The translations under genes and the position numbers were made by a program. Under the pieces are notes generated by a model. The model searched no databases and was not told the DNA's origin. It saw nothing but the letters and a program-made list of their open reading frames with translations. A stretch of 64,000 bases of DNA from Capillimicrobium parvum (lineage in GTDB: Bacteria; Actinomycetota; Thermoleophilia; Solirubrobacterales; Solirubrobacteraceae). The stretch covers positions 5,456,001 through 5,520,000 of the forward strand of contig NZ_CP087164.1 of assembly GCF_021172045.1 (NCBI RefSeq), read 5' to 3'. Below are positions 35,556-55,412 of the stretch, one piece after another (within the stretch, counting starts at the first letter, position 1; every line of letters starts with the position of its first letter).

Positions 35556-36199
35556 GCGGCGTCCGCACCTGGCTGGCCGAGCCGCACGAGGCCGAGCCGG
35601 TCGCGCGGCTGCTCGTCGCGTTCCGCAACCACCTCGCACCAGGGGTGCCGACGCCGGCCCCCGGCTCGCAAGGTGGGCTTGCGGCCCCTGCCGGCGGGAG
35701 GCGGGCCCTCGAGGGATCACCAGGGGTGCCGACGCCGGCCCCCGGCTCGCAAGGTGGGCTTGCGGCCCCTGCCGGCGGGAGGCGGGCCCCCGAGCGTTCT
35801 CCCTGGCCGTCGGACAACGCGATCCTCGCGGCGGTCGAGCGTCTCATGGAGGACCCCCAGACCGAGTACCTCCTCGCCGCGCGCGACGGGGACTCGCCGC
35901 CCGCCGGAGTCATCCAGCTGCGCTACCGCTTCAGCGTGTGGACCGCGGCCCCGGACTGCTGGCTCGAGGACCTCTTCGTCAGCGCGGAGGCCCGGCGCAG
36001 CGGCTGCGGCGCAGCGCTCGTCTCCCTGGCCCTGGAGCGGGCGGCGCTGCGCGGCTGCCGGCGCATCGAGCTCGACACGAACGAGGACAACGAGCCCGCG
36101 CTCGCGCTCTACCGGCGCATGGGCTTCTCGGAGCACTCGAAGACGAGCGGCGCGCGGGACCTCTTCCTCGGCCGCCGGATCGAGCCGGCGGCGGACTGA
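35552..36199 (+). CDS. GNAT family N-acetyltransferase with a duplicated 27-residue insertion
   Basis: Protein of 215 residues. The acetyl-CoA binding half is intact: DLFVSAEARRSGCGAALVSLALERA (R/Q-x-x-G-x-G/A loop) and CRRIELDTNEDNEPALALYRRMGF read across two strands. Between RNHLA (about residue 30) and WPSDNAIL (about 87) two near-identical 27-residue repeats (GVPTPAPGSQGGLAAPAGGR) interrupt the first helix region, where family members run directly from RxHL to WPSD. The insertion is in frame. The substrate is unknown. The 3' end is part of a triple tandem repeat. Confidence 0.83.
   Translation: MSGVRTWLAEPHEAEPVARLLVAFRNHLAPGVPTPAPGSQGGLAAPAGGRRALEGSPGVPTPAPGSQGGLAAPAGGRRAPERSPWPSDNAILAAVERLMEDPQTEYLLAARDGDSPPAGVIQLRYRFSVWTAAPDCWLEDLFVSAEARRSGCGAALVSLALERAALRGCRRIELDTNEDNEPALALYRRMGFSEHSKTSGARDLFLGRRIEPAAD
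35637..35798 (+). repeat. two tandem 81-bp repeats inside the GNAT gene
   Basis: Copies at 35637-35717 and 35718-35798 are identical over about 65 bases and differ only in the last 15. The unit contains a short imperfect palindrome around CGCAAG/CTTGCG. Its length is a multiple of three and it adds 54 residues to an otherwise ordinary acetyltransferase. Confidence 0.93.
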
Positions 36200-36305
36200 C
36201 GCGCGGGACCTCGTCCTCGGCCGCCGGATCGAGCCGGCGACGGGCTGACGCGCGGGACCTCGTCCTCGGCCGCCGGATCGAGCCGGCGACGGGCTGACGC
36301 GCGGG
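36151..36305. repeat. 49-bp unit in three tandem copies covering the GNAT stop codon
   Basis: Copies at 36151-36199, 36200-36248 and 36249-36297, with eight further bases to 36305. Copy 1 is the actual gene end (Ala-Arg-Asp-Leu ... stop at 36197-36199). Copies 2 and 3 are identical to each other and differ from copy 1 at about four positions. Every copy ends in TGA. Since 49 is not a multiple of three, the extra copies cannot be in-frame coding extensions. Confidence 0.95.
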
Positions 36306-36320: not shown

Positions 36321-37253
<933 letters not shown>

Positions 37254-40385: not shown

Positions 40386-41257
40386 GCATCCTCGTCGACA
40401 ACGACACTCGCCTCTGCGTCTCCGGCATCACCGGGCGCGAGGGCACCTTCCACGCCATGAACAACAAGCGCTACGGCACGAACGTCGTGGCGGGCGTGAC
40501 CCCGGGCAAGGAGGGCCAGGACGTCGAGGGCGTCCCCGTGTTCAACACGTTCGCGCACGCGGTCGCCGAGCGCGGCGCCAACACCGCGATGATCTTCGTG
40601 CCGCCGCGTTTCGCCGCGGACTCGATCCTCGAGGCCGCCGACGCCGGCATCAAGCTCGTCATCGCGATCACCGAGGGCATCCCGGCGCACGACGAGCTGC
40701 GGGTCTACACGCACCTCAAGCGCGCCGGCGACGTGCGCCTCGTCGGACCGAACTGCCCGGGCATCCTCTCGCCGGGCAAGGCGAACGTCGGGATCATCCC
40801 GGCCGCCTTCTTCAAGGAGGGCAACGTCGGCGTGGTCTCGCGCTCCGGCACGCTGACCTACCAGATCGGCAACGAGCTGGCCCAGCGCGGGTTCGGCAAC
40901 TCGTCGATCGTCGGCATCGGCGGCGACCCGGTCCCCGGCTCGAGCTTCATCGACATCATCGAGCTGTTCGAGCAGGACCCGCAGACGGAGCTCATCGTGA
41001 TGAGCGGCGAGATCGGCGGCTCGGCCGAGGAGGAGGCCGCCGAGTACATCGCGGCCAGCGTCTCCAAGCCGGTCGTCGGCTACATCGCCGGCTTCACCGC
41101 GCCCCCCGGCAAGACGATGGGCCACGCCGGCGCGATCGTCTCCGGCACGCAGGGCACCGCCGCGGCGAAGGCGGAGGCGCTCGAGTCGCGCGGCGTGCGC
41201 GTCGGGCGGACGCCGACGCAGGTCGCCGACATCGCGGTGGAGATCTTGGGCGGCTGA
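40382..41257 (+). CDS. sucD: succinyl-CoA synthetase alpha subunit SucD
   Basis: Protein of 291 residues that binds CoA and carries the phosphorylated His. Family stretches are [21 protein letters not shown] read in two parts, [34 protein letters not shown] and the active-site histidine region [16 protein letters not shown]. It acts with SucC in the TCA cycle and at the end of the methylmalonyl-CoA route. The last four codons and stop belong to a 14-base tandem duplication, and a strong hairpin follows. Confidence 0.96.
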
Positions 41258-41274
41258 TCCTGGGCGGCTGATCC
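41247..41274. repeat. 14-bp perfect tandem duplication over the sucD stop
   Basis: TGGGCGGCTGATCC occurs at 41247-41260 and again at 41261-41274. The first copy holds the final Gly-Gly codons and TGA stop of sucD; the second repeats them outside the gene. Confidence 0.92.
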
Positions 41275-41328
41275 GGCGCCGCCGAGGGTGAGGGCAGCCG
41301 GAACAGTCGCCGGGGGCGGGTGATTGCA

Positions 41329-41357
41329 GCCGGTCCTGCGCCGCGCGCAGGACCGGC
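41329..41357 (+). terminator. sucCD transcription terminator hairpin
   Basis: A perfect 13-bp stem (41329-41341 with 41345-41357) around a 3-base loop, 72 bases after sucD. The stem begins GCCGGTCCTGCGC. There is no clear T-run, as is common in high-GC actinobacteria. A second, weaker GC-rich inverted repeat follows near 41371-41400. The rest of 41258-41454 shows no gene. Confidence 0.75.
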
Positions 41358-41454
41358 GAGGGTTGACGAGGGGCGGCGCGGTCCCGGCGCGCCGCCGCCT
41401 CGTTGATTCGTCCAGGATGGCCGCGGGCCGCTCCAGGCCCGTTACGGTCGCGCG

Positions 41455-42366
41455 ATGCACCGAGCAGGGCTCTGCATCGCGCTGCTCGCCTTCGCGCTGG
41501 CGCTCGCCACGCCCGCCGCCGCCCTGGCGAGCGGGGCGCCGTCCGTGCGCGTCTATCGCGTCGCGCAGAGCCTGACGCTCGACGAGGGCCAGAGCGGCGA
41601 GTTCACGCTCGCCTGCCGTGCCGGCGACGTCGTCACCGACGGGACGTGGCGAGTCGAGTCGGTGGACTCGAACCGGCAGATCGACGACGAGTCGTTCGAC
41701 CTCGTCAGCGGCGTCGACGTCCTGCAGGCCGAGGCGTTCTCGCGCCAGGCCTACCGCTTCGCCGTGCGCAACAACGCGGAGGGCGATGCCGCGCTGCAGC
41801 TCGCGGTGAGCTGCCTGCGGGGCAGCGTCGGCGACCGCAAGGTCGTCGTGCGCGAGCGGCGCGAAGTGACCGCAAAGCTGGCCGCGGGCACCGCCTCGAC
41901 GCTGCCCGCGGTCGCCTGTCCGGCCGGGACGGTGGCGATCGCTTCCGGGCTGCGCATCGAGGGGGGCGGGGCGGGCCGGCTGCTCGGGCGCATGCCGGCG
42001 CTGCCCGGGCTCGAGCGCAGCACGCTGACCGTGTTGGGCCTCGACGACGTCACCGTCGTCGCCTCCGCGCGGTGCCTGCACCGCGAGACGTCCGGCCACG
42101 GCGGCCGGCGGTTCAGCCTGCGTCTGGCGTTCCGCGCGGGCGACGCACATGTCGAGGCGGGGCACGCGGCGTCTTTCACCGTGGGCTGCCGAGCGCGGGA
42201 GTCCGCGATCGCCGGCGGCTTCACGCTCTCCGCCGCCTGGTACATCGGCCAGACCACGACCCGGCGCCAGCGGGCGTTCCGGGTGCAGGCCACGGCGGAT
42301 GGCGCCGGAAGCGCCCGCCTGGGGCTGTTGTGCCTGGGCGAGCAGGCCGCGACGAGCCGTCGATGA
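41455..42366 (+). CDS. secreted two-repeat protein of unknown function
   Basis: Protein of 303 residues with a signal peptide (ALLAFALALATPAAALASG, about 9-27). Three related modules each hold a Cys and a Gly-rich turn: GEFTLACRAGDVVTDGTWRVE, STLPAVACPAGTVAIASGLRIE and ASFTVGCRARESAIAGGFTL (each quoted only in part), alternating with AALQLAVSCLRG, VVASARCLHR and ARLGLLCLGE, suggesting a disulfide per module. I do not recognise the family. The 225 bases after it (42367-42590) contain no gene I can support. Confidence 0.65.
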   Translation: MHRAGLCIALLAFALALATPAAALASGAPSVRVYRVAQSLTLDEGQSGEFTLACRAGDVVTDGTWRVESVDSNRQIDDESFDLVSGVDVLQAEAFSRQAYRFAVRNNAEGDAALQLAVSCLRGSVGDRKVVVRERREVTAKLAAGTASTLPAVACPAGTVAIASGLRIEGGGAGRLLGRMPALPGLERSTLTVLGLDDVTVVASARCLHRETSGHGGRRFSLRLAFRAGDAHVEAGHAASFTVGCRARESAIAGGFTLSAAWYIGQTTTRRQRAFRVQATADGAGSARLGLLCLGEQAATSRR

Positions 42367-42699
42367 CGATCCGCACAAGTCGAACCTTCGTCCAGAATGG
42401 CGGTGGACCGTCAAGGATCTGCGGGTTCGGGCCCTACTGTCAGATTCCGGACACACGCGCGCCCGATGCGCGCGACAAGGCAAGGAGCCTGATGCGCAGC
42501 CACGGATGCACCTCGCTCGACGGGAGCGCCGACCTGCGCGACGCGTGCCACGGACGCCGTCCGAGCGCTGCTGACGACGGGCGATGACACCGTGTCTGCA
42601 TCCCCGCACACGACCGCTCGCCGCCCGCAAACACCGGCCGGTGCAGGGGAAGGTACTGGTAGGCTGGCCGCGAATCCCGAAGGGGCGATTCACGTCCCG

Positions 42700-43779
42700 A
42701 TGGCTGCTCTGGTGACGGCACGGACTCCACACGAACCTGGAGGCGGGAACGTCTCCACCACCCTCAGCGAGCTCGAGCGCAAGCTCCGCCGCCTCGAGGC
42801 CGAGCTGACATCCGTCGCCCCGGCCCAAGCGGCGAACGGCGGCGACCAGGCGGCGCCTCCGACCGCCGCGGCTGCGCCGCCCCCGCCGGAGGTCTCACCG
42901 CCGGCACCGGTCGCCGCGCCCGCCTCGGCGCCCGTCGGATCCCGTCCCGCGACCGGCATGGGCGAAGCCGACCGCCTGCTCGCCGAGGCCCGCGCCCGCC
43001 TGGGCGGCCTGACGGGACAGGTCGACGAGCTGCTGCGCTTCCGCGAGCAGCTGCATCGCACCGCCCGCGAGCTCGAGGCCGAGTACAGCCGGGTGCTCGA
43101 GCGCATCGGTGCGCCACCTGCCCCCGCTGCCGCGCCCGGCCCCACCGCCGCCCCCGCCCCCGCTACCGCGCCTGCTCCTGCCACCTGGCCGGCGCCCGCC
43201 CCCGCCACCGCGCCTGCTCCTGCCGCCGCGCCCGCCCCCACCGCCGCGCCCGCGACCGCGCCTGCTCCTGCCGCCGCGCCGCCGCAGGCCGACCCCCAGC
43301 TTCACACGCCGGCCTCTCCGGCACTGCCCGCCCAGCCCGCCGTCCCCGGCGTGGGAACCGCGCTGCCCGACGCCGCGTACGGCACGCCGCCCCCCGCACC
43401 CGAGCCCGCCGCGTACGGCACGCCGCCCGCCGCGCCCGAGCCCGCCGCACCCACGCCGGCCCCCGTCGCCCCCGCGCCGCCCCCACCCGGCGACCACGAC
43501 GACATGACCTTCGAGGGCCCCGTCGTCATCGACGCCGGCCCGTTCTCGGACATCACCTCCCTCAGCACGTTCGAGCAGGGCCTCGCGCGCGTGGCGGGAG
43601 TCGAGGACGTCTACGTCTCGGGCTTCGAGGGCAACCGCGCGCTCATCGAGCTGCGCGTCGCCGCTCCCGTCGCGCTCGTGCGCGAGATGCGCGCCGCGGG
43701 GACCGGCGAGCTCATCGTCACGGAGGCCGCGGCCGGTCGCCTCCGCGTCGACGTCCGACCGGCCGGGACGGGAGGCTAG
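42700..43779 (+). CDS. Ala/Pro-rich coiled-coil protein with a C-terminal alpha/beta domain
   Basis: First gene of the eight-gene block, about 359 residues. A short helix (TLSELERKLRRLEAELTSV) and Ala/Pro linker lead to a coiled coil (about 88-135, DRLLAEARARLGGLTGQVDE onward), then about 140 residues of Pro/Ala repeats. The C-terminal 85 residues form a beta-alpha-beta-beta pattern (VVIDAGPFSDITSLSTFEQ, VEDVYVSGFEGNRALIEL) like a ferredoxin-fold adaptor domain. There is no membrane helix. I infer a cytoplasmic scaffold. The start is uncertain: the frame is open from 42592, and ATG 42700 was chosen. An SD-like GGAGGCGGG at 42740 has no start codon after it. Confidence 0.6.
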   Translation: MAALVTARTPHEPGGGNVSTTLSELERKLRRLEAELTSVAPAQAANGGDQAAPPTAAAAPPPPEVSPPAPVAAPASAPVGSRPATGMGEADRLLAEARARLGGLTGQVDELLRFREQLHRTARELEAEYSRVLERIGAPPAPAAAPGPTAAPAPATAPAPATWPAPAPATAPAPAAAPAPTAAPATAPAPAAAPPQADPQLHTPASPALPAQPAVPGVGTALPDAAYGTPPPAPEPAAYGTPPAAPEPAAPTPAPVAPAPPPPGDHDDMTFEGPVVIDAGPFSDITSLSTFEQGLARVAGVEDVYVSGFEGNRALIELRVAAPVALVREMRAAGTGELIVTEAAAGRLRVDVRPAGTGG

Positions 43780-43783
43780 GCCC

Positions 43784-44143
43784 ATGCCCCCGCAGCAGCG
43801 CGAGGACCGGTATCAGCCGCTGGCGCTGATCGGCGTGACGATGGTGGCGCTGCTCGGCTTCGCCGTGTTCTTCCTCTCCTTCCTCGTCGCGCCGCTGGCC
43901 ATCCTGCTCATCTTCTACGTGGGCTTCGCCGCCTCCGACCGCTCCCGCCGCCGCCGCAACGCCAGCGCGAGCGCCCACGCCAACGCCAACGCCGCGCCCG
44001 TCGCGGAGCCGCCCGGCGAGCCGGTCGCCGCCGTGCCTCCCGCCGAGCGCCACCGCGCCGCGACGCTGCTGGCCCGCGAGGCCCAGTACCGGCGCAACAC
44101 GATCGAGCGCCCGGACGACCCAGAGCCCCCCACCCCTCGATGA
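43784..44143 (+). CDS. small membrane protein with two helices
   Basis: Protein of 119 residues, starting four bases after the previous stop. Two hydrophobic segments (about 13-32 and 33-50, LIGVTMVALLGFAVFFLSFL and APLAILLIFYVGFAA) are followed by a basic cluster RSRRRR and a charged, Ala/Pro-rich cytoplasmic tail. It may anchor the neighbouring soluble proteins at the membrane. No family is recognised. Confidence 0.65.
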   Translation: MPPQQREDRYQPLALIGVTMVALLGFAVFFLSFLVAPLAILLIFYVGFAASDRSRRRRNASASAHANANAAPVAEPPGEPVAAVPPAERHRAATLLAREAQYRRNTIERPDDPEPPTPR

Positions 44144-44149
44144 GGCTCC

Positions 44150-44449
44150 ATGACCGATGATGCGCACGCCGCTATGGCCGTGGCGCTCGAAGCCGGCCTC
44201 GGCTACACCGGACTGCGCGGCTTCGAGCCCGATCCGAAGCTGTTCCACTACCTCCCGCCCACCCTCGCGTCACGCGAGCGGGCGGTGCCCGTGATCCTCG
44301 TGGGAGATCGGCTCAAGGTTGCGAGCTCGCGACCCGATCCTGATCTCACCCTCGTGCGCCAGCGTTTTCCGTACTTGACCGTCGATATCGTCATCGCGCC
44401 CGCCGTCGAGATCGAGCGCGCGCTGCAACGCGCCTCAGGGACGAGCTGA
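44150..44449 (+). CDS. stand-alone GspE-N/MshEN-C-like domain
   Basis: Protein of 99 residues resembling the second half of a GspE N-terminal domain: helix HYLPPTLASRERAVPVILVG, strand DRLKVASSRPDPDLTLVRQ, then VDIVIAPAVEIERALQRA. In type II secretion and MSHA ATPases this region follows the cyclic-di-GMP-binding motif. It lacks that motif itself. It ends on ATG 44449 of the glycosyltransferase gene (TGATG), whose N-terminus carries two more domains of this kind, so the two proteins are probably partners. Confidence 0.68.
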   Translation: MTDDAHAAMAVALEAGLGYTGLRGFEPDPKLFHYLPPTLASRERAVPVILVGDRLKVASSRPDPDLTLVRQRFPYLTVDIVIAPAVEIERALQRASGTS

Positions 44450-46713
44450 TGCAGACCACGACCGCCCCCGAGCCGAGCCGGAGCTTCTACCGCCGCCTGG
44501 CCACGCACGCGGGACTGCCGTTCGCCGCGCTCGACCCCGCGCACCGCGAGGATCCCGACTTCTTCGAGATCAACCCGCTGGCCGCGCGCCTGCTCAGCGA
44601 GCAGATCTGCCGCTACCACCGCATGCTGCCCGTCTCCTACGCCAGCGGCGTGGTGACGATCGCGACGCCCGAGCCGTTCGACCAGGTCGCCCGCGAGGTG
44701 GCCACCGCCCTCACCGGCCGCTCGGTGCGCTTCGTGGTCAGCCCCGAGGAGGACGTCGACCGGGCCATCGACGAGACGTTCGACGCGATGCCGCTCGACG
44801 AGCCCGGCCGCGTCACCGAGCCGAGCTACCCCACCCGCATCGGCGACCTGCTCGTCGCCCGCGGGATCGCCACCGACGAGCAGGTGCGCGAGGCGCTCGA
44901 GGAGCAGGAGCGCACCGGCAGCCGCCTCGGCGACATCCTCGTGCACGCGGGGATCATCCACGAGCCGGAGCTCGTCGCGATCCTCGCCGAGCAGTTCCAG
45001 CTCCCGCTCGTCGACCTCTCCGAGTACGACCCGGACCCGGAGGCGCTCGCGCTCATCCCCGAGCCGCTGGCCCGCCACCTGCGCGTCGTGCCGATCGCGG
45101 TCGACGACACGACGCTGTACCTGGCGATCGCCGACGTCCTCGACGACGACACGGTCGCCGCGCTGCGCGAGCACACGCATCTCGAGCTGCGCGGCTTCCT
45201 CGCCTCCCGCAACTCGATCGACGAGCTGCTGCAGCGCGTCCACGGAACCGAGTACGTCACGGTCGCGCGCTCCGAGCTGCTCAACCGCTTCCCCGAGGAG
45301 TCCGCCAACCGCGTCCTCTCCGGCGCCCAGAAGGGCTTCTTCCTCGCGATCGCGCTGATCTTCCTGCTCTGCCTGATCCTGGAGCCGAAGCTCACCCTCA
45401 TCGTGACGATGGCGCTGTCGAGCCTCTTCTACCTCTCGACGTCGCTGTACAAGTTCATGCTCACGTACTCGGCGCTCAGCCACCAGTACGAGGTGGGGGT
45501 CACCGACGAGGAGGTCGCCGCCCTCGACGAGCGCGACCTGCCGATGTACACGATCCTCATCCCGCTGTACCGGGAGGCGTCGGTCGTCCCGCGGCTCGTG
45601 GCCGGCATCGGCGGACTGGACTACCCGAAGACGAAGCTCGACGTCCGCCTGCTCTGCGAGGAGGACGACGACGAGACGGTCCCCGCGATCCAGGCGATGG
45701 ACCTGCCGCCGCACTTCAAGATCGTCGTCGTCCCGGACGCGCAGCCGAAGACGAAGCCGAAGGCGTGCAACTACGGCCTGCTGCAGGCCGACGGCAAGTA
45801 CGTCGTCATCTTCGACGCCGAGGACCGCCCGGATCCCGATCAGCTCAAGAAGATCGTCGTCGCCTTCACGAAGGTCGACCCGAGCGTCACCTGCATCCAG
45901 GCCAAGCTCAACTACTTCAACTCGGACCAGAACCTGCTCACGCGGTGGTTCACGACCGAGTACTCGATGCACTTCGATCTCCTGCTCCCGGGGCTGGACG
46001 CGCAGGACGTGCCGATCCCGCTCGGCGGCACCTCGAACCACTTCATCACGGACCGCCTGATCGACCTCGCGGCCTGGGATCCGTTCAACGTCACCGAGGA
46101 CGCCGACCTGGGCATCCGCCTGCACAAGGCGGGCTACAAGACGGCGATGATCGACTCGACGACGCTCGAGGAGGCCAACTCCGAGCTCAACAACTGGATC
46201 CGCCAGCGCTCGCGCTGGATCAAGGGCTACATCCAGACCTGGCTCGTGCACATGCGCCACCCGTTCCGGCTGATGCGCCAGGTGGGCTTCAAGAGCTGGC
46301 TGAGCTTCCAGATGGTGGTCGGCGGGACGTTCATCTTCCTGCTGAACCCGATCTTCTGGGCGCTGACCACGCTGTTCTTCTTCACGGAGTCCAACCTGAT
46401 CCGCGAGCTCTTCCCGAGCTTCATCTTCTACGCGGCGGCGTTCCAGCTGTTCATCGGCAACTTCGTCTTCATGTACCTCAACGTCGCGGGGTGCGTGCAG
46501 CGCGGGTACTTCGACCTCGCGAAGTACGCGCTGCTGTCGCCGCTCTACTGGGGCCTCATGTCGCTGGCGGCCTGGAAGGGCTTCCTGCAGCTGTTCTACC
46601 GACCGTTCTACTGGGAGAAGACGGTCCACGGCCTCGACGCCGGCCACGCGTCGGCCGCACCGCCCGCGCCGCGCCGCGTGGGGCCCGCTCCCGACCGCAC
46701 CGCCGCTCGCTGA
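44449..46713 (+). CDS. glycosyltransferase 2 with N-terminal MshEN cyclic-di-GMP-binding domain
   Basis: Protein of 754 residues. Residues 40-112 form a GspE-N-like subdomain. Residues 130-153 and 159-182 are two 24-residue MshEN motifs separated by exactly five residues, with R130, G132, G139, Q153 and R159, G161, G168, Q182 at the consensus places. Another GspE-N-like subdomain covers 190-265. Two membrane helices (about 296-336) precede the GT2 catalytic domain with YTILIPLYREA, FDAED (DxD-like, 455-459), TED (549-551) and QRSRW (586-590), and four or five helices follow. This resembles NfrB of E. coli with the domain order reversed. It should polymerise or move a glycan at the membrane under cyclic-di-GMP control. 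Confidence 0.9.
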   Translation: MQTTTAPEPSRSFYRRLATHAGLPFAALDPAHREDPDFFEINPLAARLLSEQICRYHRMLPVSYASGVVTIATPEPFDQVAREVATALTGRSVRFVVSPEEDVDRAIDETFDAMPLDEPGRVTEPSYPTRIGDLLVARGIATDEQVREALEEQERTGSRLGDILVHAGIIHEPELVAILAEQFQLPLVDLSEYDPDPEALALIPEPLARHLRVVPIAVDDTTLYLAIADVLDDDTVAALREHTHLELRGFLASRNSIDELLQRVHGTEYVTVARSELLNRFPEESANRVLSGAQKGFFLAIALIFLLCLILEPKLTLIVTMALSSLFYLSTSLYKFMLTYSALSHQYEVGVTDEEVAALDERDLPMYTILIPLYREASVVPRLVAGIGGLDYPKTKLDVRLLCEEDDDETVPAIQAMDLPPHFKIVVVPDAQPKTKPKACNYGLLQADGKYVVIFDAEDRPDPDQLKKIVVAFTKVDPSVTCIQAKLNYFNSDQNLLTRWFTTEYSMHFDLLLPGLDAQDVPIPLGGTSNHFITDRLIDLAAWDPFNVTEDADLGIRLHKAGYKTAMIDSTTLEEANSELNNWIRQRSRWIKGYIQTWLVHMRHPFRLMRQVGFKSWLSFQMVVGGTFIFLLNPIFWALTTLFFFTESNLIRELFPSFIFYAAAFQLFIGNFVFMYLNVAGCVQRGYFDLAKYALLSPLYWGLMSLAAWKGFLQLFYRPFYWEKTVHGLDAGHASAAPPAPRRVGPAPDRTAAR

Positions 46714-48449
46714 TGGCCGTCGCCGCACCGCCGCCCGGCCTGGGGCACCGCGCCCACACCTCCGGCACCCCACTCGACGACCGCCCGTACCGCCCCGAGG
46801 TCGCCATCCCCGGGGCCCGCATGGGCCTGCTGATGTTCGCCGTGTTCGCGGCCTTCTACTTCCTCGTCGGCTACAAGGTGACGATCGACGACCACGTCGT
46901 CGTCTTCGACGCGCTCAACCGCCTCACCGACGCGTACCTGGTGTGGTGGAACGACCCGCCGAAGCTCGCCGCGATCGGCTTCCTGTTCCCACCGCTGACG
47001 ACGTTCGCCTTCCTGCCGCTCACGGTGGTCAAGCCGGTGGCGACGTCGCTGGTGGCGCTGCCGCTGCTGACCTCGATCTTCGCCGCGGCCGGCATCGTCT
47101 GGCTGGACCGCACGCTCGCGCGCTGCGAGATGCCGCTGGTCTTCCGCCTGCCGCTGATCCTCGCGTTCGGCCTCAACCCGATGTGGGTCTTCTACGCGGG
47201 CAACGGCATGAGCGAGGCCGTCTACCTGGCGATGCTCGCGTTCTGCCTGTACGGCTTCATCTCGTGGTACGAGACGACCGAGCCGCGCTTCCTCATCGCC
47301 GCCGGCTTCGGCTTCGCGCTGCTCGTCGTCACGCGCTACGCGTTCATCGTCTGGGCGCTGCTCGTGGCGCTGCTGATCGGCGTCGCGCTCGTGCGCCGTC
47401 GCGCGAGCCGGGTGGAGGTCGAGGGCTCGGTGATCGCGTTCTGCGCGCCCGTCGTCTACGCCCTGGCGCTGTGGATCCTGTTCAACGCGCTGATCGTCGG
47501 CGAGCCGTTCGGCTGGCTGTCGGACCAGACCTCGACGCAGGCGGTCAACGCCACCGGCATCGACGTCAGCGGCTCGCTCGGCTTCGACGAGGTGTCGAGG
47601 CGGTTGCTCGAGCTCAACGTGGCGGTGTTCCCGCTCGCGTTCGCGGCGGTCCCGGCGCTCGTCATCGCGTTCCTCGGCCAGCGCAACGACATGGCGCTGT
47701 GGCTGGCCAGCTTCATCGTGCTCGGCATCGTGATCATGGGCGCGCATGCGCTGATCTCCCAGAACGAGGGACTGCTGACGCTGCGCGACTCGATGCCGAT
47801 GGCGCTCACGTCGCTCGTCGGCGCGGCCTGGGTGTACCGAAGTTACGCCGCCTTCCGATTGGTCGTCTGGGGCGTGACCCTGGTGCTGCTGATCGTCAAC
47901 CTCTTCACGGCCTGGAAGGGCATGCAGGACTACCCCTTCCAGTCGCTCGAGCAGGCGTTCACCCGCGCGATCTCCACCGGCGACAGCCAGGAGGGGACGT
48001 CGTCGCGCGGCGGCTTCAACGTGGGCATCGACCCCGAGGCCCAGATGGCGCAGCACATCAAGGACCGCATCCACACGAACAACTCGATCCTGACCGACAA
48101 CGCGCAGACGTTCGGGGTGATCCTGCTCAACGGCCAGCCGCAGGTGTTCTGGGACCGCATCGACAAGGGCGACGCGAAGTGGAACTCGGTGCTCAACGAC
48201 CCGTACGGGAAGGTGCGCTACCTGCTCGCGGCGTACAACCCGCGGTCCGGCGACCTGATCACGCGCCACTACCCGGGCCTGAACGCCGGCGCCGTGCCGG
48301 GGATGACCGTCGTCTACCGGACCGAGCGCTACATCCTCGTCCGCGTCGCGACGGCCAACCCGATCGCGCCGGTGCGCCGGACCACCACGAACCGCAACGG
48401 CAACGGGACGGGGACGGGGTCGCAGACCTTCGCCCGGCCCGGCGGCTGA
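46713..48449 (+). CDS. multi-pass GT-C-like membrane glycosyltransferase or glycan exporter
   Basis: Protein of 578 residues with about ten or eleven helices (from LLMFAVFAAFYFLVGYKV at about 38) and a soluble C-terminal part (about 420-578) containing NSILTDNAQTFGVILLNGQ and YPGLNAGAVPGMTVVYRTERY. The overall plan, with a large extracytoplasmic tail and acidic residues after the first helix (IDDHVVVFD), fits lipid-linked-sugar-dependent GT-C enzymes of the ArnT/PMT type, but no diagnostic motif is certain. It overlaps the GT2 gene stop by one base (TGATG). Confidence 0.72.
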   Translation: MAVAAPPPGLGHRAHTSGTPLDDRPYRPEVAIPGARMGLLMFAVFAAFYFLVGYKVTIDDHVVVFDALNRLTDAYLVWWNDPPKLAAIGFLFPPLTTFAFLPLTVVKPVATSLVALPLLTSIFAAAGIVWLDRTLARCEMPLVFRLPLILAFGLNPMWVFYAGNGMSEAVYLAMLAFCLYGFISWYETTEPRFLIAAGFGFALLVVTRYAFIVWALLVALLIGVALVRRRASRVEVEGSVIAFCAPVVYALALWILFNALIVGEPFGWLSDQTSTQAVNATGIDVSGSLGFDEVSRRLLELNVAVFPLAFAAVPALVIAFLGQRNDMALWLASFIVLGIVIMGAHALISQNEGLLTLRDSMPMALTSLVGAAWVYRSYAAFRLVVWGVTLVLLIVNLFTAWKGMQDYPFQSLEQAFTRAISTGDSQEGTSSRGGFNVGIDPEAQMAQHIKDRIHTNNSILTDNAQTFGVILLNGQPQVFWDRIDKGDAKWNSVLNDPYGKVRYLLAAYNPRSGDLITRHYPGLNAGAVPGMTVVYRTERYILVRVATANPIAPVRRTTTNRNGNGTGTGSQTFARPGG

Positions 48450-48479
48450 CGCCTCCGAGGCCGTTGGTAGCGTGAATCG

Positions 48480-48932
48480 ATGATGGCCGGCGACCTGACC
48501 GCGTCCGTGGGCGCCCGCGTCGAGGAGATCATGGCCGCCGCCCGGCAGGCGGCCGAGGCCCTCCAGCGCGAGGTCGACGAGGCGTCCGCGCGCCGGGCCA
48601 CCGAGGTGCGCCTCGACGCCGAGCGCGACGCCCAGCGCATCCGCGCCGAGGCGGAGTCCGCGGCGGCGCGCCACCTCGAGGAGGCCCGGCGCCAGGTCCA
48701 GACCTTCGCCGACGCGCGCGTGCGCCGCATCAGCGAGATCACGGACGCGCTCGTGGCGGCCGCCGAGAGCATCCCGGGCCGCCTCGAGGAGGCGGCCGAC
48801 GTGCGCCGCCAGATCGACGAGCTGATCGTCGCGCTCGGAGCGGCCGCCGAACAGGCCGCTCGGGAGGCGGGCCGGCCGGCGATTCGCCTGCCGGGGATCG
48901 CAGACCCGCCGCCGACCGAGGGCGACGGGTGA
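48480..48932 (+). CDS. DivIVA/ATP-synthase-b-like coiled-coil protein
   Basis: Protein of 150 residues, almost wholly helical. Residues 8-115 give heptads rich in Ala, Glu and Arg (IMAAARQAAEALQREVDEA, AQRIRAEAESAAARHLEEA). The tail is Pro-rich and acidic. There is no membrane helix. Such proteins mark poles or septa or form scaffolds. It lies 30 bases after the membrane gene and overlaps the following lipoprotein gene by four bases. Confidence 0.65.
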   Translation: MMAGDLTASVGARVEEIMAAARQAAEALQREVDEASARRATEVRLDAERDAQRIRAEAESAAARHLEEARRQVQTFADARVRRISEITDALVAAAESIPGRLEEAADVRRQIDELIVALGAAAEQAAREAGRPAIRLPGIADPPPTEGDG

Positions 48933-50302
48933 GCGGCCGCCTCGCCGCCGGCACGCTCGCGGCGGTGCTCGCCGCCCTCGGACTCGCCGCCTGCGGCGGC
49001 GACGGCGGCGGCGGCACCGAGACGGCGACGGTCGTCACGCGGACGGTCACCACGCCGCGCACCGCCCCGGCCACCACGACGCCGGCGCAGCCCAACGCGC
49101 CCGGCATCGGCGGCGCCGGCACGGAGGGGACGCCGGGCTCGGCGTCCACCGACACCGGCGCCGCGGGCGAGACCGGCAGCCTGAGCTCGACCTCGATCTT
49201 CCGGCCGTTCGCGGCGTCGAGCCCGTGGAACACGACGATCGTCGGCCAGGCGGTCGACGCCGACTCCGACCGGCTGATCGCCCAGGCGCAGGAGCGCATC
49301 GGGGTCACGGAGCGCGGCAACACGATCACGACGCAGCGCCGCCGGATCGACGACCCGCTCTTCATCAACACGACGGAGTGGACGGTCCCGATCGTCGACG
49401 AGGAGGGCGGTGTCGAAACGCGGATGGTCTGCCGCCAGATCCCGCCCGACTGCGGCGACGGGCGCAACGTCGACACCCTCCTGATCCCGCCCGACGCGTC
49501 GCCGCTGCCGCAGTTCGACGGCTGGTTCACGGTGCTCAACCGGCGCGAGGGCGTCGCGTATGACCTGTGGCGCGCGCGCCGGGGCTCCGACAACGTCATG
49601 TCCTACCAGTTCATGCGCAAGTGGGCGCTCAACGGCCCGGGCTACCAGCGACCGAACTCGGTCAGCGCGCGCGGGTCCGGCCTGCCGCTGTTCGCCGGCG
49701 TGCTGCTGCCCGAGGAGGTCGCCGCCGGGCGCATCGAGCACGCGCTCGCGATCTCGGTCCCCGGCCCGGCGCAGCGCAGCTACGTCCAGCCCGCATCAGC
49801 GACGGACGGCAACGGCCGCACGAGCTCGCTGCCCGAGGGCGCCCGGATCCGCCTGCGCACGGACCGCTTCGACGACCTCGTCTCGCTGCCGACCTGCGGG
49901 CCGGGCCGGCTGCGCGACAGCCAGGGCGAGATCCGCACGGACTGCATCGCCCCGCGCACGAACCGCAAGGCCGCGCGGGCGATCCTCGACTCGCTGCGCC
50001 GGTACGGCGCGATCGTCGTCGACCGGTCGCGCACGCCGACCCTGTACGCGAAGCAGAACGCCGACTGGAACCAGCTCCTGCGCGGGCCCGACGGCCGGCT
50101 GCTGACGGCCAGCGGCCGCGACCCGCTGCCGCGCAACCTCGCCCGTGAGCGCAACCAGGGCACGCCGCTGCTGCGCGGCAACGAGGTGCAGTTCCTGCGG
50201 CTCTCCGACTTCGAGGTCATGCAGCTGCCCGAGCTCCTGAAGTTCCCGCCGCTGGGCTCGACCGAGGTGTCCCCCCAGACCTTCACCCCGGTGATCCCGT
50301 GA
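48929..50302 (+). CDS. lipoprotein of unknown fold in the glycan block
   Basis: Protein of 457 residues with a lipobox (LGLAACGG, Cys about 23) and a Thr/Pro/Gly-rich linker (28-90). The large mature domain starts FRPFAASSPWNTTI and includes DPLFINTTEWTVPIVDEEGG, RREGVAYDLWRARRG, ISVPGPAQRSYVQPAS and RYGAIVVDRSRTPTLYAKQN. The SPWNT start and the GAIVVD end are conserved-looking, but I cannot name the family; a carbohydrate-active or glycan-binding role is only a guess from context. GTG start overlapping the coiled-coil gene; its own stop overlaps the next gene (GTGA). Confidence 0.68.
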   Translation: MSGRLAAGTLAAVLAALGLAACGGDGGGGTETATVVTRTVTTPRTAPATTTPAQPNAPGIGGAGTEGTPGSASTDTGAAGETGSLSSTSIFRPFAASSPWNTTIVGQAVDADSDRLIAQAQERIGVTERGNTITTQRRRIDDPLFINTTEWTVPIVDEEGGVETRMVCRQIPPDCGDGRNVDTLLIPPDASPLPQFDGWFTVLNRREGVAYDLWRARRGSDNVMSYQFMRKWALNGPGYQRPNSVSARGSGLPLFAGVLLPEEVAAGRIEHALAISVPGPAQRSYVQPASATDGNGRTSSLPEGARIRLRTDRFDDLVSLPTCGPGRLRDSQGEIRTDCIAPRTNRKAARAILDSLRRYGAIVVDRSRTPTLYAKQNADWNQLLRGPDGRLLTASGRDPLPRNLARERNQGTPLLRGNEVQFLRLSDFEVMQLPELLKFPPLGSTEVSPQTFTPVIP

Positions 50303-52041
50303 ACGTCCGCCTCGCCATCGCCGCGCTGCTCGCCGGCGTCGCCGCCGCGGTGCTCGTCGCGTGTGGCATCGACACGAGCGACTCCGGCACGTCGAGCGTC
50401 GCCGGGCCCGAGGGCACGACGAACACGAACACGGTGCGCCGCAACGCGCCGCCGCTGCCCGCCGCACCGGAGAACACGGTGCGCGTCGACGGCATCGAGG
50501 GCGGCCTGAGCACCGCCGCCACGAGCCGCTTCCTCGGCAGCTCGAGCGTCGGCGTCGCCCGCATCACCGCGGGCGAGGAGCAGGCGTTCGTGGACCTCTG
50601 CGCCGGCCGCGTCGACGTGATCGAGGTCGCCCGCCTGCCCACCGAGGCCGAGGTCCGCGCGTGCAACAACCGCGGCGTCGAGCTGTCCGAGCCGCTCGCC
50701 TCGGCGGCCGACGCGGAGGTCATCGCCACGAAGAACGAGGCCGACGTCGGCGGGGACTGCATCACCGTCCAGCAGGCGCGCGACATCTTCCGCGCCGGCT
50801 CGCCGTACACGACGTGGTCGCAGCTCGGCTTCTTCGACCTGCCGCTCACCACCACCGGTCGCCAGGACGGCTCGGGCAACTTCGAGTTCTTCGGCCAGGT
50901 GGTGCTCGGCGTCGACGACCCGTCGCTCGCCGACGTCCGCGCGGACTACGTCGTGGAGAACACGGACCTGCTCGAGCGCGAGGAGGTCGTGGGCCAGCGG
51001 CGCGTGACCGCCGCGCAGCGCCGCGTCGACGCGTACGAGGCGCGGCTGCGGCGCGAGACCGCCAGGGAGCGCCGGCAGGCGGTCGACGCGGCGGTCCGGA
51101 CGGCGGACCGCGCGGTGCTGCGCGCGATCGCCCGCGAGAACCAGGACCTGGCCCGCCGCAAGGTGACGCTCACCGCCGCCCAGGCGGCTCGGCTGGAGGC
51201 GCGCAACCGGGTGCGCAACATCCGCGCCAAGCGCCGCGCCGCGGCCCGCGTCAACGCCCGCTTCGACCGCGAGCTGCGCGACCGCGTCCTCCGCTATGCG
51301 CGCTCGCAGCTCGCCCTGGCTGAGGCGCCCGGCGTCGTCGGCGGCTTCCGCTTCACGTACTACGAGCTCTTCGAGGACCAGCTGCGCCCGATGGAGATCG
51401 ACTACGGCGTGCCGGTGACCGCGTCGGGCCAGCCCGTCACGCTCGACGACCTGTCCGACAAGGATCGGGAGCGGATCCTCGCCGCGCAGGGCGTCACGAC
51501 GCCGACGGTGCCCAACGTCGGGCCCGCCGCGACGGTGACCACGCCCGACGGCAACATCACGACGGTCCAGACGGCGACGGCGATCCCGGACCTCCCGGCG
51601 AGCCAGCTGCCGAAGAAGACCAAGGACGGCGAGACGATCTACCCGGGGCCGAACTGCGTGTTCCCGTCGCCGATCACGATCACCTCCGGCGCGTATCCGC
51701 TGTCGCGGCGCTTCTACCTGTTCACGTCGCGCCAGTCGCTGGAGCGCGACGAGGTCCGCGCCTACGCGCAGGCGTACCTGAAGAGCGCGCAGGCCCTGGC
51801 CACCGCGAACCGCCTCGTGCCGATCACCGACGCGCAGCTCGCCGAGGAGCTCGCGATCATCGAGAACAGGGGCCGCAAGCCCGCGGCGAAGCCGGCGACC
51901 ACCACGACGACGCGGACGGTCACGACGCCGTCCGGCACGACGACGGTGCGCACCGTGACGACCACCACCCCGGCCACCACCACCCCCCGCACGCAGACGA
52001 GCAGCGGCATCCCCGGCGTGTCCAGTCGCGGCGGCGGCTGA
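50299..52041 (+). CDS. PstS-like substrate-binding lipoprotein interrupted by a coiled coil
   Basis: Protein of 580 residues. The lipobox is VLVACG (Cys about 22). Residues 60-215 look like the first part of a phosphate-binding-type periplasmic protein (VRVDGIEGGLSTAATSRFL, DVIEVARLPTEAEV, ITVQQARDIFRAGSPYTTWS). A highly charged coiled coil of about 110 residues (about 225-340, many Arg and Ala) follows. Binding-protein character returns at about 345-370 (FRFTYYELFED) and 455-520 (ITSGAYPLSRRFYLFTSRQS). The end is a Thr-rich tail. No ABC permease or ATPase genes are near, so it may bind a ligand for signalling or assembly, not uptake. Confidence 0.72.
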   Translation: MNVRLAIAALLAGVAAAVLVACGIDTSDSGTSSVAGPEGTTNTNTVRRNAPPLPAAPENTVRVDGIEGGLSTAATSRFLGSSSVGVARITAGEEQAFVDLCAGRVDVIEVARLPTEAEVRACNNRGVELSEPLASAADAEVIATKNEADVGGDCITVQQARDIFRAGSPYTTWSQLGFFDLPLTTTGRQDGSGNFEFFGQVVLGVDDPSLADVRADYVVENTDLLEREEVVGQRRVTAAQRRVDAYEARLRRETARERRQAVDAAVRTADRAVLRAIARENQDLARRKVTLTAAQAARLEARNRVRNIRAKRRAAARVNARFDRELRDRVLRYARSQLALAEAPGVVGGFRFTYYELFEDQLRPMEIDYGVPVTASGQPVTLDDLSDKDRERILAAQGVTTPTVPNVGPAATVTTPDGNITTVQTATAIPDLPASQLPKKTKDGETIYPGPNCVFPSPITITSGAYPLSRRFYLFTSRQSLERDEVRAYAQAYLKSAQALATANRLVPITDAQLAEELAIIENRGRKPAAKPATTTTTRTVTTPSGTTTVRTVTTTTPATTTPRTQTSSGIPGVSSRGGG

Positions 52042-52058
52042 CCTCGTACATTTGGGGC

Positions 52059-53165
52059 ATGGCCCCTTCCGACACCATCTCCTTCGCCCGCGGCGCCCCG
52101 TCGCTCGACATCGTCGACGTCGAGGGCCTGCGCGAGGCGGCGGCGCTCGCCTTCGCCGAGGACCCGGCGGGCCTGACCGGCTACGGCACCGCGATCGGCT
52201 ACCCGCCCCTGCGCGCGTGGATCGCCGAGCAGCACGGCGTCGACCCGTCGCAGGTCATCGTCACGAACGGCTCGATGCAGGCCGATGCGTTCCTCTTCGA
52301 GACGCTCGTCGGCGAAGGCGACAGCGTGGTCGTGGAGAAGCCCACGTACGACCGCACGCTGCTGAGCCTGCGCAAGTACCGCCGCGCTGACATCCACATG
52401 ATCGACCTGGAGCCCGACGGCCTCGACGTCACGGCGCTCGGCGCCGCCCTGCGCGACGGCCTCAAGCCGACGCTCGCCCACGTCATCCCGAACTTCCAGA
52501 ACCCGGCGGGCTACACGCTGTCGCGCGAGAAGCGCTCGGCGCTGCTGGCGCTCGCCCGGGAGCACGACTTCACGATCTTCGAGGACGACCCGTACGTCGC
52601 GCTGCGCTTCGCCGGCGAGGCGCTGCCCACCATGCTCTCGCTCGACGAGCACGGCACGGTCGTCTACGCGTCGTCGTTCTCCAAGACGGTGTGCCCCGGC
52701 GTGCGCGTCGGCTACCTCGTCGGGCCGGCGGAGCTCATCGCCCGCATCACGGCGCTGGCGACCCACACGTACATCTCACCCTCGATGGTCGCCCAGGGCA
52801 TCGTCCACCAGTTCTGCGCGAGCGGCCGGATCCGCAGCTCGATCGAGACGGTCAAGGCCGCCCTCGCCGAGCGCGCGGGCGTCCTCTGCGCGGCGCTCGA
52901 GCGCGAGATCCCGGATGCGCGGTTCGTGGCGCCGGAGGGCGGCTACTTCCTGTGGGTCGAGCTGCCCGAGGGCACGGACGTCGCGGCGCTGTTCACCGCG
53001 GCGGCCGAGCGCGGCGTGCAGATCGTCAAGGGCACCGACTTCCTGCTGGAGGGCGGCGAGAACACCCTGCGGCTCGCGTACTCGGGCGTGACGCCCGAGG
53101 AGATCGACGAGGGCGTGCGCCGGCTGGCGGAGGCCTACGAGGCGCTCGCTCCGGCGGCCGCGTAG
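52059..53165 (+). CDS. PLP-dependent class I/II aminotransferase (2-aminoadipate/LysN-like)
   Basis: Fold-type I enzyme of 368 residues. Family signs are SFARGAPSLDIVDVEGLRE, GYGTAIGYPPLRAWIAEQHG, VTNGSMQADAFLFE, PNFQNPAGYTLSREKR (substrate/PLP Asn and Tyr) and the PLP lysine in SSFSKTVCPGVRVGY. It resembles MocR-type aminotransferase domains without the DNA-binding part. The donor and acceptor are unknown. It starts 17 bases after the lipoprotein gene, so it may be read through from that block, though its function looks unrelated. Confidence 0.88.
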   Translation: MAPSDTISFARGAPSLDIVDVEGLREAAALAFAEDPAGLTGYGTAIGYPPLRAWIAEQHGVDPSQVIVTNGSMQADAFLFETLVGEGDSVVVEKPTYDRTLLSLRKYRRADIHMIDLEPDGLDVTALGAALRDGLKPTLAHVIPNFQNPAGYTLSREKRSALLALAREHDFTIFEDDPYVALRFAGEALPTMLSLDEHGTVVYASSFSKTVCPGVRVGYLVGPAELIARITALATHTYISPSMVAQGIVHQFCASGRIRSSIETVKAALAERAGVLCAALEREIPDARFVAPEGGYFLWVELPEGTDVAALFTAAAERGVQIVKGTDFLLEGGENTLRLAYSGVTPEEIDEGVRRLAEAYEALAPAAA

Positions 53166-53228
53166 GCGATCTCGTCCATATGTCCGGTTCGATTGCGCTG
53201 CGGCGCCGCGCGTGATTTCGTGGTCTGA

Positions 53229-55412
53229 GTGAGCGCGGCTCTCGAGAGGCTCGGACGCCTGTGCGTGCGCCGCCGCTGGATCGTGCTGATCTGCTGCCTG
53301 ATGGCCGTGGTCGGGCTCGGGCTGGCGGCCGGCGCACTGGGCACGCGGACCAGCGACAACTTCGCGCTGCCCGGCACGGGAAGCCAGCGGGCGCAGGACC
53401 TCCTGGTCGACCACTTCCCGGCGGCGACCAAGGCGTCGAGCCCGGTGGTGTTCGCCGCCGCGGAAGGCCGGGTGGACCGCGGCGCCAACCGGGCGGCGGT
53501 GGACGGGGCGCTGAAGGACCTGCGCGCGGCGGATGACGTCGCGGACGTCTCGGACCCGTTCACGCCGGCCACGGTGAGCCGCGACGGGCGGATCGCCTAC
53601 GCGACGGTCACGCTCGACGGCGAGCCGCAGGACCTGACCCACGCCGCCGCGGACGACATCGTCGCCGCGACGGACGCGGCGCGCTCGCAGCTGACGGTCG
53701 CGGTGGGCGGGATCGTCGGCCAGCAGGCCGAGGCACAGGTCGAGGACCCCAGCGAGGCGATCGGCCTCGCCATCGCGGTGATCGTCCTGCTCGTCACGTT
53801 CGGCAGCGTCGTGTCGATGGGCCTGCCGCTGCTCACGGGGCTCATCGGGCTGGGTGCCGGGCTGTCGCTGGTCACCGTCCTCGGCCACCTCATCACCGTG
53901 CCGACCATCGGGCCGACGCTCGGGACGATGATCGGCCTCGGGGTGGGCATCGACTACGCGCTGTTCCTCATCACCCGCCACCGCCAGAACCTCGCCGCCG
54001 GGATGACGGTCGCCGAGTCGATCCCGCGCACGGTCGCCACGTCCGGCAACGCGGTGGTCTTCGCCGGCGGCACGGTGGTCGTCGCGCTGTGCTCGCTCGC
54101 GCTGACCGGCATCCCGATCGTGTCGTCGCTCGGGTACTCCGCGGCGATCGTCGTGGCGATCGCGGTGCTCGCGGCGATCGTCCTGCTCCCGTGCCTGATG
54201 GCCCTGGTCGGCACGAAGATCAACGCGCTGCCGATCCCCGGTCTGCACCGCCGCGCCCAGCGCGCGCAGCAGCGCGAGGGCGTGCACGGGTGGGCCCGGT
54301 GGGCGCGTGCGGTCGCCGACCGTCCGTGGCCCGCCCTGATCGCCGGGCTGGCGATCCTCGTCGCGCTCATGATCCCGGTCTTCTCGCTGCACCTCGGGCA
54401 GGCCGACAACGGCACCGCGGCCAAGGGCAGCGAGCAGCGCGTCGCGTTCGACCTGCTGTCGGAGGGCTTCGGGCCCGGGAGCAACGGGCCGCTGCTCGTC
54501 GCCGTGCCCGGTGCCCCCCAGGAGGCCGACCTGACCCGGCTGGCCGCCGCGCTGACCGGGGCCGACGGCGTGGCGTCCGTGTCGCCGCCGATCCCGGCCC
54601 AGGACGGCCAGGCCGCGCTGCTCACGGTGACGCCGACGACGGCGCCGGGCGACCTCGCGACCGAGGCGCTCGTGCGGCGCCTGCGCAACGACGTCATCGC
54701 GCCGACCGGCATCGACGCCCAGGTCGGGGGCCAGACCGCGGCGGGTGTCGACCTCGCGGCGGAGATCTCCGACCGCCTGCCGCTCGTCATCGCCTTCGTG
54801 CTCGCGCTGAGCTTCCTGCTGCTCCTGCTCGCGTTCCGGTCGATCGTGCTGCCGATCAAGGCCGCGGTGATGAACCTCCTGTCGATCGGCGCGGCCTACG
54901 GCGTGGTGACGCTCGTCTTCCAGGAGGGCTTCGGCATCTCGCTCATCGGGCTGTCGGACCCGGTGCCGATCGTCTCGTTCGTCCCGTTGATGATGTTCGC
55001 GATCCTCTTCGGGCTGTCGATGGACTACGAGGTCTTCCTGCTCAGCGCCTGCCACGAGCGCTGGATCGAGACCCACGACCCGCGCACGGCGGTCGTCGAC
55101 GGCATCGCGTCGACCGGGCGGGTGATCACCTCCGCCGCGCTGATCATGGTCAGCGTCTTCGCGGCCTTCGTCGGCAACGCGGACCCGACGGTCAAGCAGT
55201 TCGGGCTCGGCATGGCGGTGGCCGTGGCGGTCGACGCGACCGTCGTGCGCTGCCTGCTCGTGCCCGCGGTGATGATCCTGCTCGGACGCTCGAGCTGGTG
55301 GCTGCCCGCGTGGCTGGACCGGCGCCTGCCGCACGTGTCGGTCGAAGGCGCTCCTGCCCCGGCGCTCGCGGTCGAGGCTCCCGAGCCGGTCGCCGCGGGC
55401 GGGCGCGACTGA
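53229..55412 (+). CDS. MMPL family (RND superfamily) transporter
   Basis: Complete protein of 727 residues with two repeats of one helix, a large outside loop and five helices. Helix motifs are GLGVGIDYALFLITRHRQN (about 237-255) in the first half and ILFGLSMDYEVFLLSACHE in the second, each with the proton-relay Asp. It exports lipids, drugs or similar compounds. It starts with GTG 53229, 63 bases after the aminotransferase stop. The 180 bases after it hold no gene I can support (see rejected items). Confidence 0.93.
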   Translation: MSAALERLGRLCVRRRWIVLICCLMAVVGLGLAAGALGTRTSDNFALPGTGSQRAQDLLVDHFPAATKASSPVVFAAAEGRVDRGANRAAVDGALKDLRAADDVADVSDPFTPATVSRDGRIAYATVTLDGEPQDLTHAAADDIVAATDAARSQLTVAVGGIVGQQAEAQVEDPSEAIGLAIAVIVLLVTFGSVVSMGLPLLTGLIGLGAGLSLVTVLGHLITVPTIGPTLGTMIGLGVGIDYALFLITRHRQNLAAGMTVAESIPRTVATSGNAVVFAGGTVVVALCSLALTGIPIVSSLGYSAAIVVAIAVLAAIVLLPCLMALVGTKINALPIPGLHRRAQRAQQREGVHGWARWARAVADRPWPALIAGLAILVALMIPVFSLHLGQADNGTAAKGSEQRVAFDLLSEGFGPGSNGPLLVAVPGAPQEADLTRLAAALTGADGVASVSPPIPAQDGQAALLTVTPTTAPGDLATEALVRRLRNDVIAPTGIDAQVGGQTAAGVDLAAEISDRLPLVIAFVLALSFLLLLLAFRSIVLPIKAAVMNLLSIGAAYGVVTLVFQEGFGISLIGLSDPVPIVSFVPLMMFAILFGLSMDYEVFLLSACHERWIETHDPRTAVVDGIASTGRVITSAALIMVSVFAAFVGNADPTVKQFGLGMAVAVAVDATVVRCLLVPAVMILLGRSSWWLPAWLDRRLPHVSVEGAPAPALAVEAPEPVAAGGRD

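What the first reader, a model, noticed from the sequence alone, without database searches (positions are those of the whole stretch)
44449..46713. Textbook double MshEN motif at the N-terminus of a glycosyltransferase
Residues 130-153 and 159-182 each match the 24-residue MshEN c-di-GMP consensus and are separated by exactly five residues, the known spacing. They are joined to a GT2 domain with DxD-like, TED and QxxRW motifs. NfrB of E. coli joins the same parts in the opposite order; here the sensor is N-terminal and flanked by two GspE-N-like subdomains, suggesting an independent fusion.
Basis: partly seen in the sequence, partly recalled or inferred. Interest (0 to 1): 0.8.

Follow-up and report, generated by a model that had tools for sequence, protein, structure and literature searches.

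The report
c-di-GMP-sensing polysaccharide synthase with split sensor
This soil actinobacterium carries a membrane enzyme that very probably builds a surface polysaccharide when the signal molecule c-di-GMP docks on its N-terminal sensor; this kind of enzyme is known and widespread, but here the sensor has extra modules, one of them split off as its own small overlapping gene.

Summary
Window 44449-46713 encodes a 754-aa protein with a c-di-GMP-binding MshEN module at 130-182 (24+5+24 residues; Pfam E 3.9e-34; NCBIfam c-di-GMP motif 64 bits, cutoff 38) in front of a GT2 synthase (DAED, TED, QRSRW). An AlphaFold model (pLDDT 89.6) matches MshE:c-di-GMP over 128-265 and cellulose synthase over ~308-740. 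The fusion differs from NfrB's, whose GT region does not match. It is not private: 55 of 62 aligned family members, across many phyla, carry N-terminal MshEN, and Ferriphaselus XagB and Zetaproteobacterial Sfz2 with this layout are published. 'Motif arginines conserved' holds in the four nearest orthologues, not family-wide; the key glycines are well kept. Best reading: a c-di-GMP-activated processive exopolysaccharide synthase, XagB/Sfz2 type, in a variant architecture. Binding, activation and polymer are inferred.

The parts
44449..46713 (+). MshEN-GT2 membrane glycosyltransferase, 754 aa (P0001)
   Evidence: model pLDDT 89.6, pTM 0.79
44560..44784 (+). N-terminal extra MshEN_C-like subdomain, residues ~38-112
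   Evidence: PF05157 59.5 bits at window 44512-44787; MshEN_C HMM 45 bits
44836..44994 (+). MshEN_N c-di-GMP-binding module, residues 130-182 (two 24-residue motifs, 5-residue spacer)
   Evidence: NF053729 64.2 bits, cutoff 38; MshE:c-di-GMP 5htl Z 19.2, rmsd 2.2 A over 138 residues, for model residues 128-265
44995..45252 (+). MshEN_C subdomain, residues 183-268
   Evidence: PF05157 71.1 bits
45322..45477 (+). two predicted membrane helices, residues 292-343
   Evidence: helices in model, hydrophobic sequence; membrane insertion is inferred
45541..46227 (+). GT2 catalytic domain, residues 365-593, with DAED 456-459, TED 549-551, QRSRW 586-590
   Evidence: PF13641 E 4.1e-23; motifs; cellulose synthase fold
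46261..46632 (+). C-terminal interface and membrane helices to about residue 728, with family signature PFYWEKTVHG
   Evidence: model helices 605-717; conserved columns
44150..44449 (+). 99-aa stand-alone MshEN_C subdomain protein; its TGA overlaps the ATG of the synthase (TGATG)
   Evidence: PF05157 45.6 bits, cutoff 23.1; sequence; orthologues with overlapping stop/start in L035, L109, L110, L113
46713..48449 (+). 578-aa polytopic membrane protein, distant GT-C/PMT-like glycosyltransferase; start overlaps synthase stop (TGATG)
   Evidence: conserved next to the synthase in Actinobacteria, Chloroflexota and Bacillota; PMT_2 in relatives
43784..44143 (+). 119-aa small membrane protein, cluster member
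   Evidence: conserved upstream in relatives
42592..43779 (+). 395-aa Pro/Ala-rich protein, cluster member, function unknown (start codon uncertain)
   Evidence: conserved in near relatives; no family
48480..48932 (+). 150-aa coiled-coil-like protein, cluster member
   Evidence: conserved in four near relatives
48929..50302 (+). 457-aa predicted lipoprotein, conserved in the cluster, function unknown
   Evidence: alignment of 13; model too poor to use
50299..52041 (+). 580-aa lipoprotein-like protein with PstS-like substrate-binding domain, cluster member
   Evidence: PF12849 E 1.6e-9

Best explanation
The gene encodes an inner-membrane, processive GT2 polysaccharide synthase of the XagB/Sfz2 type. 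Its N-terminal cytosolic MshEN_N module (130-182) binds one c-di-GMP across its two motifs; with the flanking MshEN_C subdomains it then releases or orders the catalytic domain, as PilZ does in BcsA and C-terminal MshEN in NfrB. The enzyme polymerises a nucleotide-activated sugar and threads the chain through its own membrane helices; the co-conserved GT-C-like membrane protein and lipoproteins modify, anchor or release it outside. The coupled 99-aa MshEN_C protein is proposed to be a split-off piece of the sensor array that docks on the synthase. Shown here: architecture, fold match, motif conservation, gene cluster, conserved overlap. Inferred: c-di-GMP binding, activation, processivity, polymer identity, docking of the small protein.
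For: Sensor; MshE:c-di-GMP structure match Z 19.2, rmsd 2.2 A, 36% identity over 138 residues; motif agrees with the consensus better than that of NfrB, which binds c-di-GMP experimentally. Synthase: cellulose/hyaluronan synthase fold, DAED/TED/QRSRW conserved throughout. The genome can make c-di-GMP: 13 GGDEF and 3 EAL matches, and the only MshEN domains in the genome are here. Cluster: GT-C partner adjacent across phyla, BcsB upstream in Ferriphaselus, Ammonifex, a gammaproteobacterium, a Chloroflexota MAG and a Paenibacillaceae MAG, and annotated BcsB in Geobacillus. Small protein: conserved with stop/start overlap in five genomes, and in L012/L108 an extra MshEN_C lies in frame with the synthase. 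Members that lost a motif glycine (four lineages) sit in genomes with 0-2 GGDEF (one exception with 10) against a median near 10.
Against: No binding or activity data. Motif arginines are not conserved family-wide. The motif-loss/GGDEF association rests on four independent losses, sign test p 0.25, and the motif score overall does not track GGDEF number (rho -0.03). No BcsB in the window's cluster, so a cellulose-like product is not implied. Some family members lack MshEN, so the synthase can work without it.
Confidence: 0.75

Rival explanations
1. The N-terminal MshEN is a degenerate structural or dimerisation module, as in XpsE, and the synthase is constitutive or regulated otherwise.
For: Motif decay in Nocardioides and other members; members with no MshEN or with an FHA domain instead; XpsE precedent for a non-binding MshEN.
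Against: In this protein and its nearest relatives all 22 relaxed positions (21 in L007), both arginines and both glycines are intact; the c-di-GMP_motif model scores well over cutoff; the genome has c-di-GMP enzymes.
Confidence: 0.15
2. The GT2 is a non-processive transferase that adds one sugar to a lipid or protein (PcManGT-like), with the GT-C-like neighbour using the lipid-linked sugar.
For: The top structural match by Z is the mannosyltransferase PcManGT (Z 28.6); the neighbour is GT-C/PMT-like, a class that uses lipid-linked sugars.
Against: TED and QxxRW typical of processive synthases are conserved throughout; several C-terminal membrane helices, cellulose synthase match over 380-400 residues; BcsB partner in several phyla.
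Confidence: 0.25
3. The 99-aa ORF is an independent protein unrelated to synthase control, or a decaying remnant of a duplicated domain.
For: It lacks the 24-residue binding motif; similarity to the synthase's own MshEN_C is low (about 20 bits).
Against: 45-69% identity and an overlapping stop/start kept in five genomes; no other MshEN protein in the genome to serve; in-frame fused counterpart in L012/L108.
Confidence: 0.25

Closest known systems
XagB-like protein of Ferriphaselus sp. R-1 (Kato et al. 2015, PMC4643136) and Sfz2/Sfb2 of stalk-forming iron oxidisers (PMC8250860)
   Same: N-terminal EpsE-N/MshEN domain plus C-terminal GT2 with QxxRW; gene next to BcsB-like and further xag-like genes; locus L062, from the Ferriphaselus sp. 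R-1 genome with BcsB upstream, is 42% identical to P0001 over 131-731
   Different: They have only MN-MC-GT; here MC-MN-MC-GT plus a separate MC protein, and no BcsB in the cluster
NfrB of E. coli (PMC8669469, PMC8669472)
   Same: GT2 synthase controlled by an MshEN domain; same DAED and TED
   Different: Sensor C-terminal; GT region not matched by the NfrB HMM; partner is an outer-membrane pore, not found in this cluster
BcsA cellulose synthase
   Same: Catalytic and membrane fold, TED, QxxRW, c-di-GMP control
   Different: Sensor is a C-terminal PilZ domain; identity about 20%
MshE/PilB ATPases and Thermus PilF with serial GspE-N domains
   Same: MshEN_N and MshEN_C subdomains; PilF also has several in a row
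   Different: Joined to an ATPase, not a glycosyltransferase

Membership tests
MshEN c-di-GMP receptor domain (PF05157 / NF053729) | two 24-residue motifs separated by 5 residues | tested here: met
MshEN c-di-GMP receptor domain (PF05157 / NF053729) | fold of the MshE:c-di-GMP complex | tested here: met
   5htl Z 19.2, rmsd 2.2 A, 138 residues
MshEN c-di-GMP receptor domain (PF05157 / NF053729) | binds c-di-GMP | not testable with these tools
   needs a binding assay
XagB/Sfz2-type synthase | N-terminal MshEN followed by GT2 with the family's GT sequence | tested here: met
   L062 (Ferriphaselus) 42% identity; GT tree places both in one family; no Xanthomonas XagB or Sfz2 sequence was compared directly
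XagB/Sfz2-type synthase | gene cluster with BcsB-like and xagC-like genes | tested here: inconclusive
   GT-C-like neighbour present and related to the downstream gene in many relatives, though barely to that of L062; BcsB not found in the window cluster
NfrB family | NfrB equivalog score over cutoff 1170 | tested here: not met
   68.6 bits, sensor only
BcsA cellulose synthase | CelA/BcsA equivalog score and PilZ domain | tested here: not met
   CelA 65.8 vs cutoff 699; no PilZ among the Pfam matches
Processive GT2 synthase | DxD-like, TED, QxxRW and synthase membrane fold | tested here: met
   processivity itself not testable

The most novel reading that the evidence does not exclude
The c-di-GMP sensor of this synthase is a two-polypeptide array: a stop/start-coupled stand-alone MshEN_C protein docks on the MC-MN-MC sensor and tunes the response. 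The family as a whole treats the sensor as an exchangeable, extendable ladder (single, tandem, split, up to ~10 subdomains in Chloroflexota, or replaced by FHA), decaying when c-di-GMP synthesis is lost.
Probability: 0.3. Interest if true: 0.55.

Novelty: new variant of a known kind. Interest (0 to 1): 0.42.

Why it matters
It identifies what c-di-GMP is likely to control in this Solirubrobacterales lineage, where this protein is the only MshEN effector in the genome, and suggests a c-di-GMP-activated polysaccharide synthase cluster in monoderm soil bacteria without the PilZ-BcsA architecture. The split MshEN_C gene gives a direct way to ask what MshEN_C does, which the original structural work left unclear. 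The family offers natural variants (gained, lost, replaced sensors) for testing how c-di-GMP opens a synthase.

Tried and rejected
The conserved lipoprotein 48929-50302 was folded to learn about the polymer; the model was poor (pLDDT 53.9), its fold search meaningless, and no PDB match or family over cutoff was found. A general correlation of motif score with GGDEF number was absent; only glycine loss showed an association, and the phylogenetically corrected test has no power. GT tree outgroups (BcsA, NfrB, PgaC) have saturated branches, so the tree itself does not prove separate origin from NfrB; profile scores were used instead. The promoter/terminator scan gave nothing above chance, and no Rfam element or riboswitch was found in 41000-53300. 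Literature searches found no paper on MshEN-GT2 in Actinobacteria in the held library.

Full report
OBSERVATION. The ORF 44449-46713 (+) is real: 754 aa, no in-frame start before the ATG. Residues 130-153 and 159-182 are two MshEN motifs with a five-residue spacer. Motif 2 matches the strict consensus; motif 1 departs at I131, A141 and V146, but both satisfy the relaxed motif of Wang et al. 2016 (PMC5013675) at all 22 defined positions. Pfam MshEN E 3.9e-34; NCBIfam c-di-GMP_motif 64.2 bits over 38. The three PF05157 matches in the whole 5.95 Mb genome all lie here. GT motifs DAED, TED and QRSRW are present.

STRUCTURE. An AlphaFold2 model from 59 relatives has mean pLDDT 89.6, pTM 0.79. VIA-align: residues 128-265 match MshE bound to c-di-GMP (5htl, Z 19.2, 2.2 A over 138 residues, 36% identity); about residues 308-740 match cellulose synthases (for example 9fnn Z 26.4, 4p00 Z 24.1), hyaluronan synthases and the mannosyltransferase PcManGT (Z 28.6). 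Layout: MshEN_C-like (38-112), MshEN_N (130-182), MshEN_C (183-268), two predicted membrane helices, GT2 domain, C-terminal helices.

The third PF05157 match lies in a different frame: a 99-aa ORF at 44150-44449 that is a bare MshEN_C subdomain (45.6 bits, cutoff 23.1). Its TGA overlaps the ATG of the synthase (TGATG). Orthologues at 45-69% identity sit at the same place in L035, L109 (G031), L110 (G011) and L113 (G020), each with an overlapping stop/start. In L012/L108 an additional MshEN_C is in frame with the synthase (MC-MC-MN-MC-GT), and in Svornostia (L111) the N-terminal MC is on a separate ORF (a frameshift cannot be excluded there). This split/fused pattern is the best evidence that the small protein belongs to the sensor; its docking is inferred.

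FAMILY. Relatives occur in Solirubrobacterales, Nocardioides, Patulibacter, Chloroflexota, Paenibacillaceae, Sporolactobacillus, Proteobacteria and others. 55 of 62 aligned members match MshEN (some rows were clipped, so a lower bound). Layouts: MN-MC-GT (many phyla), MC-MN-MC-GT (the window's clade), MN-MN-MC-GT (Paenibacillaceae), arrays of up to 10 subdomains in 1300-1400-aa proteins of Chloroflexota (six PF05157 stretches in L044), none (Mycobacterium, Victivallales, Nonomuraea), and an FHA domain instead in a Planctomycetota MAG (L085, FHA 61 bits). In the GT tree P0001 lies in a 26-row clade (SH-aLRT 99) of actinobacterial and Chloroflexota proteins.

INDEPENDENT FUSION? The NfrB model matches only the sensor, and the GT part alone scores 44 bits with BcsA, 27 with PgaC and 5 with NfrB. 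A layout of this kind is published: the XagB-like gene of Ferriphaselus (PMC4643136; L062 is from that genome, has BcsB upstream and is 42% identical) and Sfz2, described with an N-terminal EpsE-like domain and GT2 with QxxRW, DxD and TED (PMC8250860). In the passages read, that paper does not use the name MshEN (no occurrence) and discusses RxxxR and RxxD as c-di-GMP motifs.

MOTIF CONSERVATION. Four nearest: R130, G132, R159, G161 all kept. In 24 clade members R130 13, G132 21, R159 19, G161 24. NfrB binds c-di-GMP with Pro at motif-1 position 1, and G491L in NfrB abolishes N4 infection, so glycines are the better test. Members that lost a motif glycine lie in genomes with GGDEF counts 0, 0, 0, 1, 2, 2 and 10 against 1-74 in the rest (Mann-Whitney p 0.0002, not corrected for kinship). 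With kinship there are four losses, 2.7 of 4 in the expected direction and none against, p 0.25. Suggestive only; drafts and MAGs may miss GGDEF genes, and two E-value limits were used.

CLUSTER. Genes 43784, 44150, 44449, 46713, 48480, 48929 and 50299 follow each other closely, several overlapping. The synthase, the GT-C-like protein, the lipoprotein and the PstS-like protein are conserved together in Solirubrobacterales, Patulibacter and Nocardioides; synthase plus GT-C-like protein also in Chloroflexota and Bacillota. Elsewhere a BcsB-like gene lies just upstream (annotated in Geobacillus). The window's cluster has no recognisable BcsB. One operon is inferred; no promoter or terminator signal above chance was found.

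MECHANISM. Most likely a c-di-GMP-activated processive exopolysaccharide synthase. Shown: parts, fold, conservation, cluster, presence of 13 GGDEF and 3 EAL matches in the genome. Inferred: binding, activation, direction of the effect, polymer.

NOVELTY. A new variant of a known kind: known MshEN-GT2 synthase, with extra MshEN_C subdomains and a split, coupled MshEN_C protein. The split sensor keeps it above ordinary.

Noticed in passing
window 2580-2840 (+): A weak GGDEF match (33 bits) in a long open frame of 748 aa lies elsewhere in the same window (genome C1:5458580-5458840); probably a degenerate diguanylate cyclase domain.
   Followed up: no
window 35637-35794 and 36151-36305: Near-perfect tandem DNA repeats, 81-bp unit twice (98% matches) inside, and 49-bp unit 3.2 times (97%) at the end of, a GNAT-like acetyltransferase ORF; recent local duplications, the second giving repeated alternative C-termini.
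   Followed up: partly
window 36321-37253 (-): ORF with collagen-like Gly-X-Y repeats preceded by 48-bp tandem repeats ([16 protein letters not shown]) behind a signal-like sequence.
   Followed up: no
window 48929-50302 (+): Conserved predicted lipoprotein of no known family with invariant DGW, DLWRARR-like and HxLA motifs, kept next to the synthase in 13 genomes or contigs; possible polysaccharide-acting enzyme.
   Followed up: partly
L044 4507-8529, L043 664-4635, L080 4840-9030, L041 29-4012: Chloroflexota synthases of 1300-1400 aa with serial arrays of MshEN_C and (partly degenerate) MshEN_N subdomains before the GT2 domain.
   Followed up: partly
L085 5323-7491: Planctomycetota relative with an FHA domain in place of MshEN on the same GT family, suggesting phosphopeptide instead of c-di-GMP control.
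   Followed up: partly
L092 (Geobacillus plasmid): A BcsB + MshEN-GT + GT39 operon on a plasmid typed as conjugative, so the synthase cluster may be mobile.
   Followed up: no
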